Shown: positions 58,686-64,000 of the stretch, one piece after another
How positions within the stretch are numbered: position 1 is the stretch's first letter
How the letters are laid out: every line of letters begins with the position of its first letter
From: a bacterium
GTDB taxonomy: Bacteria; Cyanobacteriota; Vampirovibrionia; Vampirovibrionales; Vampirovibrionaceae
Length of the DNA: 64,000 nt
Reading direction: 5' to 3'
Assembly: GCA_030429585.1 (NCBI GenBank)
Contig: JAUIEU010000001.1
Location: 615,994 to 679,993 of the forward strand
Made by a program: the position numbers and the translations under genes
Notes under the pieces: model-generated
Database searches by the model: none
What the model saw: the letters and a program-made list of their open reading frames with translations, nothing else
Told to the model about the DNA's origin: nothing

Positions 58686-59183
58686 ATGCGAGTGTTAAGT
58701 GTTCTAGCAACCACTATCTTACTGACAGGCATTGCTGTTGCTCAAGATATGTCACCCAATACCTTTGATATAAATGGGAAAATTTACGATTGGATAGATG
58801 AAGAAACCTATTGCGAGCGCCACGCCCAAGATATTGTGTGTGGAGGAAGCGAAAAAGCCAAACAACCCAACTTGTACCTGCCCCCAGTAGGTGGATTAAT
58901 GACCTACAGTGACTACGAAACCGCCATTTTAAAGGGTGAGTTGGCGCCTTATGATAAAGACTGGATAATGCCTGGCGGATTATATGAGTACTGCCTAACC
59001 CATTCCAGCGAAATTGTTTGCGGAGGCACCGACCAAGCAAAGAATCCAAACCACCCCATTAAAAACTGCGATGCAGAGCAAACGGTTGGCTTATTAGAGC
59101 AGATGATTAGCGATGGCGATATGCTGCCCTTAAATAAAATGGAAGTGAAATACCAAAAAGGATATGGGAAATGCAATTGCTAA
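58686..59183 (+). CDS. Secreted two-repeat cysteine protein (YC-DIVCGG family)
   Basis: The 165-residue product has a signal peptide to about residue 19 (ending AVAQ). The mature part carries two copies of a repeat, Y-C-x6-(D/E)-I-V-C-G-G (YCERHAQDIVCGG and YCLTHSSEIVCGG), each followed by (E/D)-x-A-K-x-P-N, and it ends with CNC. The cysteines suggest disulfides. AAGGAG is 9 bases upstream of the ATG, 23 bases after rpe, so it may be co-transcribed with it. A shorter paralogue with one repeat is at 60903. I recognise no published family. Confidence 0.7.
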   Translation: MRVLSVLATTILLTGIAVAQDMSPNTFDINGKIYDWIDEETYCERHAQDIVCGGSEKAKQPNLYLPPVGGLMTYSDYETAILKGELAPYDKDWIMPGGLYEYCLTHSSEIVCGGTDQAKNPNHPIKNCDAEQTVGLLEQMISDGDMLPLNKMEVKYQKGYGKCNC

Positions 59184-59389
59184 ATGGTTCAATATTTAAT
59201 GCCAATTAATCTTGCAATAGCAATGAGGCAAACACATTACACAACTACTGATAATGGTTATCATGATCAAAATTTAGTATATAAATATAACTTAATACAT
59301 ATTTCGTTACTAAATTTATTGTAAATCTGAAAATATATTCGATTTAGCTAGCCTTTTAACCAAGTTCCTCAAATTGAGGAGCTTTTTCC
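59184..59389. promoter_or_regulatory. AT-rich control region of the phage-like element
   Basis: These 206 bases hold three symmetric elements. TGATAA-TGG-TTATCA is at 59249-59263. AAATTTAGTA (59270-59279) and TACTAAATTT (59308-59317) are 10-bp arms with a 28-base AT-rich spacer. TCCTCAAATTGAGGA (59366-59380) is a palindrome overlapping the ribosome site of the 59390 gene. Together they look like a promoter/operator region for the rightward module. Confidence 0.5.
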
Positions 59390-59929
59390 ATGTCCACTAA
59401 GAGATTAGGGGCTGCATTAGCGCGGGCAAATGCGCTAGCAGGCCAAAACCCAACCCCCTCGCGTCATGACCATGACCATGAACAAGAAAAAACCATTAAG
59501 GTTGATAAAACCCCTAAAATCCACCGTATTCCACTGAATAACTCTAATCCGTCTAAACAAGATCAAGATCATGAGAACGCCCATGAGCGAAATTCGCTGG
59601 CAGGGGTGGATGCCCAGGGCAGGCCCATCACCAAAGGGCGCACCAGCCTTGCGAGAATCGTCAACAGTGACCCAACCTTCCTTATGGCACAGGATGATAT
59701 GGGTATTCGCGCAGACGGCCTTGTGTACCATTGCAAGCGGCTTGGGGTGGATAGGGTCCGCAAAATTATTTTGCATTTCTCCACCTGGAATAAGGCCTAC
59801 TTTACCAATATGGCCGGGTACATTATGGGGGTGATGAAAAATGCCGCCCCCGGCAGCACAGACCCCATTGGCACACGCCGCACAGCTGACTACCAACGGT
59901 GGCTAGCTGAAAACGGCCACACGAAATAG
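59390..59929 (+). CDS. Phage-like protein of unknown function
   Basis: The 179-residue product opens the rightward module. Residues 1-70 are polar and His/Asp/Gln-rich (HDHDHEQ, QDQDHENAHE) and probably disordered. Residues about 80-179 look globular, with a helical GVDRVRKIILHFSTWNKAYFTNMAGYIMG part and a final YQRWLAENG. Similarity to a replication or packaging protein cannot be claimed from sequence alone. Its ribosome site, GAGGAG, is inside a palindrome (59366-59380), so it may be translationally or transcriptionally repressed. Confidence 0.55.
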   Translation: MSTKRLGAALARANALAGQNPTPSRHDHDHEQEKTIKVDKTPKIHRIPLNNSNPSKQDQDHENAHERNSLAGVDAQGRPITKGRTSLARIVNSDPTFLMAQDDMGIRADGLVYHCKRLGVDRVRKIILHFSTWNKAYFTNMAGYIMGVMKNAAPGSTDPIGTRRTADYQRWLAENGHTK

Positions 59930-59938
59930 GGGGACGTT

Positions 59939-60175
59939 ATGACACGTATTACACCGCGCCTGGTTAGCTCTATCCATGAGTTTTACGGCCTAGCCCCCTT
60001 GCCATCCATCCCACACCGTGACCGAACTGGGAGGTGGCTAACACTGCCCGAGAAAATGGCCATTGCCAACGCCAGGCTAAGTGGCTGGCACGTGACCGAT
60101 GTCGCCAATCACTTTGGAATATCAGAATCCCACGTATACGCCCTCGCTAGAAGGAACTGCCCACAATGTCGATGA
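59939..60175 (+). CDS. Small helix-turn-helix protein
   Basis: The 78-residue protein has a predicted HTH in its second half: AIANARLSGWHVTDVANHFGISESHVYALARR, where VTDVANHFGISESHVYAL is a classical helix-turn-recognition helix. It ends with CPQC. It is likely a small regulator, or a DNA-targeting subunit, of the phage-like element. It begins 10 bases after the preceding stop, and its end overlaps the next small gene by 10 bases. Confidence 0.65.
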   Translation: MTRITPRLVSSIHEFYGLAPLPSIPHRDRTGRWLTLPEKMAIANARLSGWHVTDVANHFGISESHVYALARRNCPQCR

Positions 60176-60339
60176 AGAAAACCCTTACAAAACGGCTTGA
60201 ATCACTCTATAAACGCTGGAAACTACGCAAAAATCGTATTACCCAGGCGGAAAAAGAAATGATTGAACTAGAAAGCCTAATGGAACCAATGAAACAACAT
60301 CTAAATGCCATTGAAGCGCTGGAAAAGGAGGCTAAATAA
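60166..60339 (+). CDS. 57-residue helical protein (short gene)
   Basis: The ATG at 60166 lies inside the end of the HTH gene in another frame, and the stop TAA overlaps the next ATG as TAATG (60337-60341). The basic, then acidic, all-helical product (MSMKKTLTKRLESLYKRW..., ending EALEKEAK) looks like a coiled coil. Evidence is the good overlap pattern on both sides and phage-like spacing; it is below usual length cut-offs and could be missed. GAAGGAAC lies about 10-15 bases upstream. Confidence 0.6.
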   Translation: MSMKKTLTKRLESLYKRWKLRKNRITQAEKEMIELESLMEPMKQHLNAIEALEKEAK

Positions 60340-60629
60340 TGCAAACAACTAGTTACGAAAAAAAGCCTATACCAAAGGTTTTTACCGCATGTGTGGCTAC
60401 GGATGATTTTAGGATTGCTAGCACCCCAGTAGGAAAAAAGCTGCTACCGCAGGCCTTAGAACTTACGGAAGCCATAGCAGAGTTAAAAGGCTGGAAGGTT
60501 GTTGTGTGGGAATTTTCACACATTGATAAAGTTGTGGTAATGCCTACAGAGCCACCCGACGTGCTTTCCCGAATTAAGGAATGGTTACAAGCCTACAAGC
60601 CACAATACAGCGTACAGGAGGGCAACTAA
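60339..60629 (+). CDS. Unknown small phage-like protein
   Basis: The 96-residue product has a compact alpha/beta look: TPVGKKLLPQALELTEAIAELKGWKVVVWEF and VVVMPTEPPDVLSRIKEWLQAY. No signal peptide or membrane span. Start and stop both lie in TAATG overlaps with the neighbouring genes, which points to translational coupling. AAGGAGG upstream of the ATG (about 60325-60331) is a strong ribosome site. Function not recognised. Confidence 0.6.
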   Translation: MQTTSYEKKPIPKVFTACVATDDFRIASTPVGKKLLPQALELTEAIAELKGWKVVVWEFSHIDKVVVMPTEPPDVLSRIKEWLQAYKPQYSVQEGN

Positions 60630-60811
60630 TGGAGCCTATTTTTACCTTTAACGAGGTGGTTTTTAGTACCACCGCATTAATATTCGGTATGGCGTTTGGC
60701 GGTTTTTTAAATGAAGAAATTCACAAAGAAACCCGCTCTCGCCTTTACTGGATGTACCACCACACTAAAAAAGCTAGTCAATTGTTAGAACGGTTAGACC
60801 TTTCCCAGTAA
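60629..60811 (+). CDS. 60-residue single-span membrane protein
   Basis: I take the ATG at 60629 (overlapping the preceding stop as TAATG, with CAGGAGGG upstream) over the longer frame beginning at 60581. The product has a hydrophobic segment near the N-terminus (VVFSTTALIFGMAFGGFL) and a basic, helical tail ending ERLDLSQ. It may be an inner-membrane phage protein or holin-like; nothing else can be said. It is the last gene of the rightward module, before a strong terminator. Confidence 0.6.
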   Translation: MEPIFTFNEVVFSTTALIFGMAFGGFLNEEIHKETRSRLYWMYHHTKKASQLLERLDLSQ

Positions 60812-60835
60812 CAACAATGCAACTTTTGTTACAAT

Positions 60836-60861
60836 AGGGGGAACTTTTCCCCCTTTTTTTT
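60836..60861 (+). terminator. Rho-independent terminator of the rightward phage-like module
   Basis: GGGGGA (60837-60842) pairs with TCCCCC (60848-60853), followed by eight T (60854-60861). A second symmetric element, GTAACAA...TTGTTAC, lies just before it (about 60807-60832). Confidence 0.9.
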
Positions 60862-60902
60862 GTCCTTTTTTTTGTCGTAAATCAACTTTTCGGAGTGCCG
60901 CA

Positions 60903-61226
60903 ATGCGTTTCTTTTCTATTTTAATTGCACTTTTACTTGCCGCAAACGTCGCTTTTGCTGAACAATACCCACCCTTAACCGAGCAAACCTGGGGGGAGGA
61001 TGCTCCACCAGAAACTATAGACTTGTCAGATTATTGCGGTCGGCGTCCTAACGATATTATTTGCGGTGGAAGCGTTCACACTACATTGCCAAGCCTAAAA
61101 CTAAATAAATGTGGTTATGTTTACACGCTTAAAGAGTATGAAAAACTTGTTTCAGAGGAAGGCTGGCCACACTTTAAAAAAGAAATAGAGAACTACGATC
61201 AGTCAGTAGAGTTCTGTGGTTGTTAG
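60903..61226 (+). CDS. Secreted one-repeat cysteine protein (YC-DIICGG family)
   Basis: The 107-residue protein has a signal peptide (to about 19, ending NVAFA), then one YC-x6-DIICGG repeat (YCGRRPNDIICGG), a following KCGYVYTLKEYEKL helix, and ends with CGC. It is a paralogue of the protein at 58686, which has two repeats and ends in CNC. CGGAG is about 8 bases upstream of the start. It stands between the two convergent phage-like modules, like a cargo (moron) gene. Function unknown. Confidence 0.65.
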   Translation: MRFFSILIALLLAANVAFAEQYPPLTEQTWGEDAPPETIDLSDYCGRRPNDIICGGSVHTTLPSLKLNKCGYVYTLKEYEKLVSEEGWPHFKKEIENYDQSVEFCGC

Positions 61227-61323: not shown

Positions 61324-61509
61324 TTATTTCTTTTTAGGCTCCGCATTGCCAAAATTCAATGCCAGATAATTCATAAAATCTCGCAATGCTTGTAATACGG
61401 CATTGTCCACTTTGTTAGGGGTGGCCATTGCAATCATGCTGGCGGTGGCAATAAGGCTACTAATTACCTTCCACCACATGCTGTTAATAAACAATTCCAG
61501 GGCTTCCAT
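61324..61509 (-). CDS. Small membrane protein (phage-like operon)
   Basis: The 61-residue protein has one hydrophobic segment (WWKVISSLIATASMIAMA) and a basic end (EPKKK). GAGAGGAA is upstream of the ATG. It is the last gene of the leftward operon, behind two other small membrane proteins, as is common for holins, spanins or internal-membrane proteins of phages. The family cannot be named. Confidence 0.6.
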   Translation of the reverse strand: MEALELFINSMWWKVISSLIATASMIAMATPNKVDNAVLQALRDFMNYLALNFGNAEPKKK

Positions 61510-61524
61510 AGGGTTCCTCTCTCT

Positions 61525-61710
61525 CTATCGGTTATGGGGCATACACTGCCGTTCCACGGCAATGGTTACGGCTTCAGCCAATCGTGTGGTATTCCAAGTG
61601 TTCACCGCCATTGGCACCACATACACCAGCACTAAAGCCAATAAAAAAAAAGTTTGTAAGCTAGGGCGGTCTAATATCCTTACCACCACATCAGCCCATG
61701 TGCTTGCCAT
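61525..61710 (-). CDS. Small single-span membrane protein (phage-like operon)
   Basis: The 61-residue product has a hydrophobic segment (TFFLLALVLVYVVPMAV, about 20-36) with short charged ends. It starts two bases after the stop of the upstream gene at 61713, and the next gene begins 15 bases after its own stop. Holin-like size, but assignment not possible. Confidence 0.6.
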   Translation of the reverse strand: MASTWADVVVRILDRPSLQTFFLLALVLVYVVPMAVNTWNTTRLAEAVTIAVERQCMPHNR

Positions 61711-61712
61711 GG

Positions 61713-61925
61713 TTATAACCTCCTAAACAGGCTATAACCCAGGTAAGAAACACCAATAATGGCCACCCATCCAAGGGTAGTGTTTAGGGTGTCTAGTGGG
61801 CCCCGGCTATGGGGGCTGGCAGGGTCAGCCGTAATGCCAAACCGTTCAACCGCATCATCCGCTTGGGTAGCAACCCACACACCGGCACCGCCAACCGCAG
61901 CCGCCGCAATTAAAGGGAATACCAT
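61713..61925 (-). CDS. Small two-span membrane protein (phage-like operon)
   Basis: The start at 61925 overlaps the stop of the peptidase gene as TAATG; an ATG three codons earlier is less likely. The 70-residue product has a first hydrophobic segment (VFPLIAAAAVGGAGVWVATQ) and a second near the end (LGWVAIIGVSYLGYSLF), with a soluble loop between. It is a candidate holin or virion-membrane protein next to a peptidase. Confidence 0.6.
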   Translation of the reverse strand: MVFPLIAAAAVGGAGVWVATQADDAVERFGITADPASPHSRGPLDTLNTTLGWVAIIGVSYLGYSLFRRL

Positions 61926-62662
61926 TAGTACCACGCTCCTGTATTTCTGTTATATTTCCAGCGGTTTTTATCTTTTAAATCCATGTGGAATTTACCGCTG
62001 TACTTACCACCAGGACCATCAGCAATACCGTATGCACCAGGGAAACCAAGTCTTAAGGCTGTATCTAAAATCGCTTTGTTTTGGTAATAAGTACCTGCGA
62101 AATCAATGGCAGAGCCTTCTTCGTGACGCTTAGAGGCATTAATTTCATTATTAGTTACCCTGTCACGTAACCAAGAGTAAACGCTCAATGGTTTTCCCAT
62201 CGCTTCTCGTATTTTATCCAACCATTGAGCCATTTTTTCCGCTTTATAATACGCGCTTTTTGGCACTAATTTAAAACGGTTTTTAGCTCTCATCGTATCG
62301 GAAGAGAAAACCTCTCCCCAAGTGAAATAACGGCTAATTTTTTGGCCAAATATTTCATTATGTCGCCCTGCATGAACCATACTATAAGCATCTTCTGGAT
62401 GAAGTTTATTTATTGCAGGTTGGTCTTTCACAATGCGGCCCTCTACGTTGGCTTCAAAATGTACTGGTGGTGCGGTAACGCTTTGCACGGTGGTTCCATT
62501 GGGCAACCGAATAGGTGGCCGTGGTATTACCGTTGTTATGGTTTGGCCAGGCACGGGGGCCTGGCCGCTTTGGTATTCTTTATTAGCTTTGTAAATGCCG
62601 TAGCCAGCCACGGCAGCCGCACCCATCACTATTACCGATTCTACAAAAACTTTGCCGCTCAT
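61925..62662 (-). CDS. Membrane-anchored M15-family peptidase (endolysin-like)
   Basis: The 245-residue protein has an N-terminal membrane span (about 7-22, VESVIVMGAAAVAGYG), a Pro/Gly linker, and a C-terminal M15_3-type D-Ala-D-Ala peptidase domain (about 105-245). Zinc ligands visible are H180 and D187 (KRHEEGSAIDF) and H226 (GKFHMD); SWLR at 163-166 is also typical. It would cut peptide cross-links in peptidoglycan. The anchor makes it either a virion-entry enzyme or a signal-arrest-like lysis enzyme. Its start overlaps the end of 62659 as ATGA. Confidence 0.85.
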   Translation of the reverse strand: MSGKVFVESVIVMGAAAVAGYGIYKANKEYQSGQAPVPGQTITTVIPRPPIRLPNGTTVQSVTAPPVHFEANVEGRIVKDQPAINKLHPEDAYSMVHAGRHNEIFGQKISRYFTWGEVFSSDTMRAKNRFKLVPKSAYYKAEKMAQWLDKIREAMGKPLSVYSWLRDRVTNNEINASKRHEEGSAIDFAGTYYQNKAILDTALRLGFPGAYGIADGPGGKYSGKFHMDLKDKNRWKYNRNTGAWY

Positions 62663-62979
62663 ACGTTACCCCCTGGCACCGGCGCGGGGCCGTTGTCGTA
62701 ATCCCAATAAGTAATGCCCGTTTTAAAAATAGTGCCGCTTTCGCCAATGGTGCCGTCATCCTGCCAATACCCGCCATAGTACGGGCTATCCCAAGGCACC
62801 GGAATAAAGCCCGTACCCGCAGCATTGGCAAAACCCAAACCATTGCCACCCTGGCGGTTGCTCTCTCTCGCTTTACCCTTACCGTAGGCACTGGCAGCCA
62901 TAAACCACACCAACCCGCCTACGGCAAGGATGGCAAGTGCGGCTGCCTGGCCTTTGGTAAATTTAGGCTTTTTGGCCAT
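62659..62979 (-). CDS. Single-span membrane protein with Gly/Tyr/Asp-rich tail (phage-like operon)
   Basis: The 106-residue protein begins with a basic stretch (MAKKPKFTKGQ), then one membrane span (AAALAILAVGGLVWFMAASAY, about 12-32). A polar, Gly/Trp/Tyr/Asp-rich tail follows, with SPYYGGYWQDDGTIG and a Pro-Gly end. Its topology (short basic inside, long outside) is similar to minor membrane proteins of internal-membrane phages, but no homologue is identified. Starts 17 bases inside the end of the upstream gene. Confidence 0.6.
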   Translation of the reverse strand: MAKKPKFTKGQAAALAILAVGGLVWFMAASAYGKGKARESNRQGGNGLGFANAAGTGFIPVPWDSPYYGGYWQDDGTIGESGTIFKTGITYWDYDNGPAPVPGGNV

Positions 62980-63274
62980 GCATCACTCCATTAAATAATG
63001 CTTGTACTCTGGCTAATACAGCGGTTTCTGCCTCACCAATAGGTTTAATTTCTGTATTGATATACTGTAAAAAGGCCTCATAATCTTTCTGCTCTGCCAA
63101 CATTAAGGCAGCACTAATATCTTTGGCCAAGCGAAGTTTACTCATCATTGGCAGGCCGTTAATGAGCTTCCGAGCTTCTTCTAACACCGGTTTAAAATTA
63201 GGTGGTGGTGGCTCACTAGGGGGTAGGTAGGTCATGCCTTCCTCTACCAGCTTGCCGTTGCGTTGAATCATCAT
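62963..63274 (-). CDS. Unknown protein of the phage-like operon
   Basis: The 103-residue, helical protein has a Pro-rich segment (YLPPSEPPPPNFKP) and then helices with LEEARKLINGLPMMSKLRLAKDISAALML. No membrane segment. Start and end overlap the neighbouring genes by a few bases, which suggests coupled translation in the late operon. Function unknown. Confidence 0.6.
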   Translation of the reverse strand: MMIQRNGKLVEEGMTYLPPSEPPPPNFKPVLEEARKLINGLPMMSKLRLAKDISAALMLAEQKDYEAFLQYINTEIKPIGEAETAVLARVQALFNGVMHGQKA

Positions 63275-63813
63275 GCGGGGATCTCTCCATAAATCTTAAT
63301 TAGGCCACCATCAAAGTTGCCTGCACTGGGGTAAAGTTGGATACCGTTATGGGCTGCTGCCGTGGTGTGGAACCCTGCCGCCTGGATATTGGCATAACGA
63401 TTGGTGGTAGCGTAGGCACCACCCATCACATGGGCACGGGTCTGCTGAGCGGCGTCCCCTGGCTCCATTAACTCAATCAGAATATCTGCCAGCTCATTGG
63501 CGGCATTACCAATACCAATACCGCTTAACGTAATTACCGTTGCCGCATCGTTATTGGTGTAACCACCACTATTTTCTGTCCACCACTTGTAGTTAGTAGC
63601 TAACCAGCTGGTTCCACCGTCATCTGTTAAACGCAAGTATGGCGTGGCACCATCACTTGTGGTGGTCAGGCCAGTAATATCAATCAGGTATTTTTTAAAA
63701 GCTGTCCAGTCCACCGCGTTGGTAATTTCTACCGCCGCCACACTGGTGGTAATTTCCTCCGTGTGCAACAGCTTCCGGATGCTTCCGGACGGCCCGCTAA
63801 TGCCATTAAACAT
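63271..63813 (-). CDS. Spike/capsid-decoration-like protein
   Basis: The 180-residue protein is beta-rich and Thr/Gly/Asn-rich, with TTTSDGATPYLRLTDDGGTSW, AATVITLSGIGIGNAANELAD, and IQLYPSAGNFDGGLIKIYGEIPA. The TDDGGTSW and GGLIKIYG elements are reminiscent of phage receptor-binding or spike domains. No signal peptide; it is in a structural operon. The start overlaps the stop of the upstream gene by one base (TAATG). The fold can only be suggested, not shown, by eye. Confidence 0.6.
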   Translation of the reverse strand: MFNGISGPSGSIRKLLHTEEITTSVAAVEITNAVDWTAFKKYLIDITGLTTTSDGATPYLRLTDDGGTSWLATNYKWWTENSGGYTNNDAATVITLSGIGIGNAANELADILIELMEPGDAAQQTRAHVMGGAYATTNRYANIQAAGFHTTAAAHNGIQLYPSAGNFDGGLIKIYGEIPA

Positions 63814-64000
63814 TATGCAATTACCTCCAGCACCGTCACGTCCACATCCGTAGCGTTGCCACGCCGCCCGTACAGGGCCGCACCACTCGCAAGGGTAATA
63901 GACTGACCCGCAGTAATCTTCATGCCCCTGGGGGCCGCATCGTTGCCCACGTTGGCATCACCTACCCACACGTTTTCCGTGGTGTGTTGATTCTGAATCA
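63813..64000 (-). CDS. Structural-like protein, C-terminal fragment
   Basis: The frame enters from the right edge; 61 residues are visible before the stop at 63813. They are beta-rich with NVWVGDANVGN, GMKITAGQSITLASGAALYG and a final VDVTVLEV, like small phage virion proteins with a repeated beta-sandwich (the pattern of a value with a baseline and a unit vector). The 5' part lies beyond the window. It probably belongs to the same late operon as the spike-like gene. Confidence 0.6.
   Translation of the reverse strand, partial: IQNQHTTENVWVGDANVGNDAAPRGMKITAGQSITLASGAALYGRRGNATDVDVTVLEVIA

What the first reader, a model, noticed from the sequence alone, without database searches (positions are those of the whole stretch)
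61324..64000. Possible tailless, membrane-containing temperate phage rather than a tailed phage
Eight consecutive leftward genes give at least four small membrane proteins, a membrane-anchored M15 peptidase and beta-rich spike-like proteins, with coupled starts (TAATG, ATGA). Internal-membrane phages of the double-jelly-roll group carry such sets; an anchored peptidase fits virion entry. No tail gene is seen. If true, it would be an unusual phage for a cyanobacterium-related host. An ordinary tailed phage, with holins and endolysin after the spike, is the main alternative.
Basis: partly seen in the sequence, partly recalled or inferred. Interest (0 to 1): 0.62.

Follow-up and report, generated by a model that had tools for sequence, protein, structure and literature searches.

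The report
Tailless membrane-phage provirus in Vampirovibrionales
The genes at the end of the window are the left half of a small, apparently intact tailless virus of the PM2 type (a protein shell predicted to enclose a membrane). It sits dormant at the single chromosome-resolution site (dif) of a non-photosynthetic relative of cyanobacteria, a host group for which I found no earlier report of such viruses.

Summary
The chromosome continues past 64000, and the same leftward operon runs on to window-equivalent 69339. There it encodes a PM2-type double-jelly-roll capsid protein (Pfam P2_N 3.9e-17, P2_C 3.6e-11; AlphaFold2 pLDDT 82, best PDB match PM2 P2, E 2.4e-19), a 170-aa HerA/FtsK-like packaging ATPase, a penton-base homologue and small membrane proteins, in Vinavirales order. 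No portal, tape measure or tail gene was found; the one "terminase" hit is a mislabelled packaging-ATPase family. The element is 10.33 kb, bounded by two dif-type 28-mers, encodes no tyrosine integrase and lies near the GC-skew switch. The dif core occurs once in each of ten host-family genomes, with or without the provirus. Related proviruses occupy dif in other Vampirovibrionaceae, including Vampirovibrio chlorellavorus. Their structural genes are under purifying selection and, between two of the species, much less diverged than host genes. This is a new, probably family-level, lineage of a known kind in a new host phylum. Virion production and a virion role for the peptidase are inferred, not shown.

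The parts
59244..59271 (+). attL: dif-type 28-mer ACTACTGATAA TGGTTA TCATGATCAAA (XerC arm, centre, phage-type XerD arm). Its partner attR lies beyond the window at window-equivalent 69575-69602 (L002 13569-13596)
   Evidence: 19-bp exact direct repeat with attR; only two such sites in the genome at up to 3 mismatches, none for the reversed control; same pair geometry in relatives
59390..59929 (+). early gene, 179 aa, candidate replication initiator
   Evidence: PHROG replication initiation protein at E 0.07 only; orthologue in G004 at the same place, 37% identity, 5e-34. Function inferred
59939..60175 (+). 78-aa helix-turn-helix protein, candidate lysis/lysogeny regulator (Jorvik Gp1-like position)
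   Evidence: HTH_28 8e-5, just under cut-off; hhalign to Jorvik Gp1, probability 37
60166..60811 (+). three small early ORFs (57, 96, 76 aa), function unknown
   Evidence: no family matches
60903..61226 (+). 107-aa secreted Cys-containing protein, possible cargo gene
   Evidence: N-terminal hydrophobic segment; only homologue in ten family genomes is the gene just outside attL
61324..61509 (-). 61-aa small protein, last gene of the late operon, holin candidate
   Evidence: homologues in the same place in all four other proviruses; borderline hydropathy
61525..61710 (-). 61-aa membrane protein
   Evidence: hydropathy 2.32; homologue in G004
61713..61934 (-). 73-aa membrane protein
   Evidence: hydropathy 2.19; homologue in G004
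61925..62662 (-). membrane-anchored M15 peptidase, 245 aa, at the place of PM2 P5 / Jorvik Slt
   Evidence: PF08291 over cut-off; phrog_894 3e-14; hydrophobic N-terminus; homologues in G004, G005, G009
62659..62979 (-). 106-aa membrane protein
   Evidence: hydropathy 2.06; positional counterpart in G004
62963..63274 (-). 103-aa soluble protein, unknown
   Evidence: positional counterpart in G004
63271..63813 (-). 180-aa protein, candidate receptor-binding (spike tip)
   Evidence: phrog_14820 1e-4, unknown function; gene at this place is the fastest-diverging late gene in relatives, 50-59% aa identity against 97-99% for the penton base. Function inferred
63813..64000 (-). penton base (spike base), 202 aa; cut by the window end, continues to window-equivalent 64421 (L002 7807-8415). 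The late operon goes on to window-equivalent 69339; the parts beyond the window are listed in the full report
   Evidence: profile hit to solved penton base GP14 (9t9r/9t9v) 2.5e-4; hhalign to autolykivirus ORF17 probability 97 and NO16 ORF14 probability 93

Best explanation
The region is the left half of a 10.33-kb provirus of a tailless, double-jelly-roll, PM2/autolykivirus-like bacterial virus (order Vinavirales) in a Vampirovibrionaceae chromosome. Shown by sequence and predicted structure: a PM2-type capsid protein, a packaging ATPase, a penton base and the Vinavirales late-gene order; dif-type attL and attR at the chromosomal dif; no tyrosine-type integrase of its own; orthologous proviruses in four relatives, with dif-type sites at both ends in three and at the one end that is on the contig in the fourth. 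Inferred: the circular genome enters dif by the host XerC/XerD recombinases and replicates from the rightward early operon (59390-61226) after induction. The leftward late operon then makes a shell enclosing a membrane vesicle, which the ATPase fills with DNA. The variable protein at 63271-63813, on the penton base, recognises the host. The anchored M15 peptidase cuts peptidoglycan at entry or lysis, and the small membrane proteins at the end of the operon act as holin or lysis factors.
For: Capsid: Pfam P2_N and P2_C over cut-off, profile match over both domains to a solved DJR capsid, AF2 pLDDT 82 with PM2 P2 as best PDB match, then PBCV-1, iridovirus, STIV and PRD1 capsids. ATPase. Penton base. 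Late-gene order as in PM2, Jorvik and 1.249.A. att pair and dif; dif core once in each of ten family genomes including five without the provirus; provirus near the GC-skew switch. No tyrosine recombinase between the sites. Dif in provirus-free relatives lies between the homologues of the sequences that flank the V. chlorellavorus-group proviruses. Capsid dN/dS 0.01-0.03, and G005-G006 structural dS 0.13-0.38 against 1.2-3.0 for host neighbours.
Against: No virion, induction or excision data. Several small proteins are assigned by position and hydropathy only. The replication protein has no significant family match. P3, P8 and P7 counterparts found no profile support. G006-G009 capsid dS (0.44) is close to that of a neighbouring host gene (0.54), so recent transfer is not shown for that pair. 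Serine integrases were not searched for specifically.
Confidence: 0.92

Rival explanations
1. An ordinary tailed (Caudoviricetes) prophage whose spike, holins and endolysin happen to lie at the window end.
For: M15 endolysin-like gene and small membrane proteins next to a spike-like gene; PHROG label 'terminase large subunit' on the ATPase and a weak 'tail protein' hit on the 296-aa protein.
Against: The whole 10.3-kb element between dif sites has no portal, HK97-fold capsid, tape measure or tail genes. The ATPase is 170 aa and aligns with the autolykivirus packaging ATPase. The capsid is a P2 double jelly roll.
Confidence: 0.01
2. A decayed Vinavirales remnant, no longer able to make particles, kept by chance or for a host function.
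For: No evidence of induction; chromosomal copy in a single assembly; replication module unrecognised.
Against: All late and early ORFs are open, both att sites are kept, and gene order is conserved with four other proviruses. Relatives' structural genes mostly show dN/dS of 0.01-0.1 (computed for the G005-G006-G009 group, not for this copy).
Confidence: 0.05
3. A capsid-bearing element that is no longer a virus (a gene-transfer or killing particle domesticated at dif).
For: Fixed position at dif; presence in 5 of 10 family genomes; secreted accessory genes near the early end.
Against: Own early operon with a putative replication gene, dif-type ends, patchy presence within one genus, lower divergence than host genes in two of three pairs, and a fast-evolving receptor-binding position all fit a transmissible virus.
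Confidence: 0.02

Closest known systems
Autolykiviridae (Vibrio phages 1.249.A, 1.008.O, 1.080.O, 1.020.O; autolykivirus-like D526)
   Same: Closest in packaging ATPase (37-45% identity), the protein upstream of the ATPase (probability 100, 2.6e-27) and penton base; same late-gene order with acetyltransferase
   Different: Autolykiviruses have a linear genome record with a type-B DNA polymerase, most with an annotated terminal protein; here no polymerase was found, the ends are dif-type, and the element is a provirus. The MCPs form separate clades
Asemoviridae (Vibrio phage NO16)
   Same: Temperate, dif-like sites suggesting XerCD integration (PMC9966536); MCP and penton base detectable by sequence in solved structure 9t9v, whose chain length and residues fit NO16
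   Different: MCP about 23% identical; a large gene (1902 bp) in the early region of NO16; different host phylum (Vibrio)
Mestraviridae (Rhodobacter phage Jorvik, Marinomonas phage YY)
   Same: Circular genome, no integrase, dif-like att, small HTH gene plus small replication gene, M15 peptidase present (PMC10589892)
   Different: In Jorvik the M15 gene is in the packaging operon and a transglycosylase follows the spike; here the M15 enzyme itself follows the spike genes. MCP and ATPase in different clades
Corticoviridae (PM2)
   Same: P2 capsid fold, P9 ATPase, late-gene order
   Different: PM2 carries a large replication protein P12 (1905-bp gene) and a P5 lysin (PMC9502842); MCP about 17% identical

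Membership tests
[quoted passage not shown]
Vinavirales (PM2-like tailless viruses) | FtsK/HerA-type packaging ATPase upstream of the capsid gene | tested here: met
Vinavirales (PM2-like tailless viruses) | P1-like spike/penton-domain protein downstream of capsid and membrane-protein genes | tested here: met
   Penton-base homologue, (E 2.5e-4; order as in the references)
Vinavirales (PM2-like tailless viruses) | Gp-h homologue upstream of the ATPase | tested here: met
   296-aa protein to 1.249.A ORF07 probability 100; direct to PM2 Gp-h only probability 30
Vinavirales (PM2-like tailless viruses) | P3, P7, P8 and P10 membrane proteins and GNAT between ATPase and spike | tested here: inconclusive
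   Right places and mostly hydrophobic; profile support for GNAT (82) and partly P10 (60), none for P3, P7 and P8
Vinavirales (PM2-like tailless viruses) | Cell-wall hydrolase after the spike | tested here: met
   M15 peptidase; a different enzyme class from P5 or SleB
Vinavirales (PM2-like tailless viruses) | Icosahedral virion with internal membrane | not testable with these tools
   Inferred from gene content
Autolykiviridae | Type-B DNA polymerase and terminal protein | tested here: not met
   No such gene among the ORFs between the att sites; largest ORFs are 296 and 288 aa
Autolykiviridae | MCP within the family clade | tested here: not met
   Vampirovibrionaceae MCPs form their own clade, 100/100; small reference set
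Tailed phages (Caudoviricetes) | TerL, portal, HK97 capsid, tail genes | tested here: not met
Elements integrated by host Xer recombinases (IMEX-type) | Integration at dif, no own tyrosine integrase, dif-type sites at both ends | tested here: met
   the recombination itself was not tested

The most novel reading that the evidence does not exclude
A distinct virus family, limited so far to Vampirovibrionaceae, with its own entry/lysis enzyme (a membrane-anchored M15 peptidase carried in the virion), a separate fast-changing receptor-binding protein on a conserved penton base, and variable secreted cargo proteins that alter the predatory host. It would be the first Vinavirales family from the cyanobacterial phylum, active and moving between host species.
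Probability: 0.3. Interest if true: 0.68.

Novelty: new member of a known kind. Interest (0 to 1): 0.52.

Why it matters
The papers read here place known Vinavirales in Proteobacteria and, tentatively, Verrucomicrobia (PMC9502842, PMC10589892). This adds the cyanobacterial phylum, through a lineage that includes Vampirovibrio chlorellavorus, a predator of Chlorella. It gives named genomes in which a tailless, membrane-type virus can be sought by induction. It also adds a Vinavirales lineage that sits in the host's own chromosomal dif site. Automated pipelines would miss it: its ATPase is labelled "terminase" in PHROGs and most of its genes match nothing.

Tried and rejected
Tailed-phage reading: rejected on capsid, ATPase and absence of tail genes. 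'Terminase' PHROG hit: traced to a packaging ATPase of phage D526. Searches of IMG/VR with the window's MCP, the family MCP alignment and G004's MCP found nothing; with the ATPase alignment only the known phage 1.249.A. Plasmid search: nothing. First AF2 model from five near relatives was poor (pLDDT 54); adding five distant MCPs raised it to 82. ATPase hits in six more class genomes lie in 578-594 aa open frames, so I take them as cellular HerA-type helicases, not proviruses. Weak P2_N hit in G044 (0.0093, three stops) left aside. dnaA was not a guide to the origin: it lies 0.35 Mb from the provirus, but sampled GC skew puts origin and terminus near 1.7 and 0.6-0.69 Mb. Replication gene: no significant match in Pfam, PHROGs, NCBIfam or phages. 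RNA families in the element: none. Defence-system models on early genes: none.
Full report
WHAT WAS CHECKED. The window is G000:C1:615994-679993 of a 2.21-Mb single-contig genome, so the DNA beyond 64000 could be read. In locus L002, position + 56006 gives the window-equivalent coordinate. All eight leftward ORFs described are present with the couplings described. The operon continues to window-equivalent 69339.

PARTS BEYOND THE WINDOW (window-equivalent coordinates, all - strand unless stated). 64427-64768 P10-like membrane protein, 113 aa. 64765-65190 GNAT-like acetyltransferase, 141 aa. 65166-65495, 65505-66053 and 66055-66390: proteins of 109, 182 and 111 aa at the places of P8, P4 and P3. 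66402-67268 major capsid protein P2, 288 aa. 67298-67438 and 67441-67533: tiny hydrophobic proteins of 46 and 30 aa at the place of P7. 67643-68155 packaging ATPase P9, 170 aa. 68155-68436, 93 aa, unknown. 68449-69339, 296 aa, homologue of autolykivirus ORF07 (Gp-h position). 69575-69602 (+) attR. Sources. The flanking host genes are ribulose-phosphate 3-epimerase on the left, followed by a Cys-containing secreted protein, and an ABC-transporter ATPase on the right.

CAPSID. The 288-aa product matches Pfam P2_N (3.9e-17) and P2_C (3.6e-11), both over their cut-offs. With its four relatives as a profile it matches a solved double-jelly-roll capsid at 2.1e-15 over nearly the whole chain. An AlphaFold2 model on ten sequences has mean pLDDT 82. 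Its best PDB match is the PM2 capsid protein P2 (E 2.4e-19, TM 0.62-0.65), followed by PBCV-1, iridovirus, STIV and PRD1 capsids. Even the poor first model had PM2 P2 on top.

PACKAGING, PENTON AND THE REST. The 170-aa ATPase is 45% identical to the packaging ATPase of Vibrio phage 1.249.A, and its profile finds HerA structures. The PHROG name 'terminase large subunit' fits such ATPases: the D526 homologue carries that label. The gene cut by the window end is a penton-base homologue (E 2.5e-4). The protein upstream of the ATPase matches autolykivirus ORF07 (2.6e-27), and a GNAT-like protein lies between capsid and penton, as in other Vinavirales (PMC9502842). After the penton base come a variable protein, a soluble and a membrane protein, the anchored M15 peptidase and three small proteins. 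The order is that of PM2, Jorvik and 1.249.A, but the wall enzyme at the P5 position is an M15 peptidase.

ENDS AND INTEGRATION. A 19-bp exact direct repeat bounds the element and extends to 28-bp dif geometry: attL at 59244, attR at 69575, 10,331 bp apart. Searching the genome with up to three mismatches finds only these two sites. The core GATAATNNNNATTATGTTC occurs exactly once, without mismatch, in each of ten genomes of the family, including five without the provirus. Sampled GC skew is positive from about 1.76 Mb through 0.57 Mb and negative from 0.69 to 1.67 Mb, so the provirus at 0.675-0.686 Mb lies near the terminus. Relatives G005 and G006 show the same pair of sites around 10.1-10.2 kb. 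G004 has attR and a left site recognisable by XerC arm and centre only, about 11.3 kb away. In G009 only attR is on the contig. In four of the five provirus-free genomes dif lies inside one intact ORF of 327-375 aa, whose two halves flank the provirus in the V. chlorellavorus group; this shows the empty site. None of the eight tyrosine-recombinase matches of the genome lies in the element. Integration by host XerC/XerD, proposed for NO16 and for Jorvik (PMC9966536, PMC10589892), is the simplest reading, but was not tested.

HOST AND SPREAD. The name of the window's own genome was not seen; it is placed by kinship to these. The MCP is found in 5 of 10 family genomes and 5 of 382 of the class, all in that family. 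P2_N finds only this genome over cut-off among 386 sampled from the phylum. Distant MCPs could be missed by these searches.

EVOLUTION. MCPs of the five proviruses form one clade (100/100) apart from Autolykiviridae, PM2/NO16 and Jorvik/YY (small reference set, long branches). Between G005 and G006, conserved structural genes have dS 0.13-0.38 and dN/dS 0.01-0.09, while neighbouring host genes have dS 1.2-3.0. The simplest reading is that the virus moved between these species after they split. For G006-G009 the two rates are similar, so no such claim is made there. The gene after the penton base is far more diverged (50-59% aa identity) than penton base and capsid (97-99%), which is why I take it as the receptor-binding protein. 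The early module differs between lineages: this genome and G004 share a 179/184-aa protein, the V. chlorellavorus group does not. Exchange of replication genes is usual in Vinavirales (PMC9502842).

HOW IT MOST LIKELY WORKS. Shown: gene content, capsid fold by prediction, dif-type ends, and homologous proviruses in relatives. Inferred: XerCD-mediated entry into and exit from dif, replication from the rightward operon, assembly of a shell around a membrane vesicle, ATP-driven DNA packaging, host recognition by the variable protein on the penton base, and peptidoglycan cutting by the anchored M15 enzyme at entry or lysis.

NOVELTY. Papers read here name proteobacterial and probably verrucomicrobial hosts only (PMC9502842, PMC10589892). 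Text searches for Vampirovibrio or cyanobacterial hosts of such viruses found no report, but the library holds open-licence papers only. I file it as a new, probably family-level, member of a known order.

Noticed in passing
window 58686-59183 and 60903-61226: Two related secreted Cys-containing proteins, one just outside attL and one inside the provirus, with no other homologue in ten family genomes. The outer one may be left from an earlier dif insertion or be the source of the viral gene.
   Followed up: partly
L011 16983-17291, L012 17452-17727, L013 7323-7577: Related proviruses carry a secreted protein with nearly constant signal peptide and strongly different mature part (42-56% overall identity), beside almost identical structural genes.
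   Followed up: partly
L064 4916-5935, L065 7606-8733, L067 4501-5520, L068 5297-6280: In four provirus-free relatives the chromosomal dif site lies inside an intact coding frame of 327-375 aa (looks MnmC/MnmD-like to me; no Pfam match for the fragment tested); the provirus splits it in V. chlorellavorus.
   Followed up: partly
window 59244 and L011 8646: The provirus lies in opposite orientation relative to dif in this genome and in the V. chlorellavorus group, so attP orientation differs between close relatives.
   Followed up: no
L035 (G044:C1:504-716): Weak P2_N-like stretch with three stops in another family of the class (E 0.0093, below cut-off), possibly a decayed capsid gene or chance.
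   Followed up: no
PHROG phrog_2666 (match to L002 11637-12149): Family named 'terminase large subunit' catches packaging ATPases of tailless phages, a trap for automatic annotation.
   Followed up: yes
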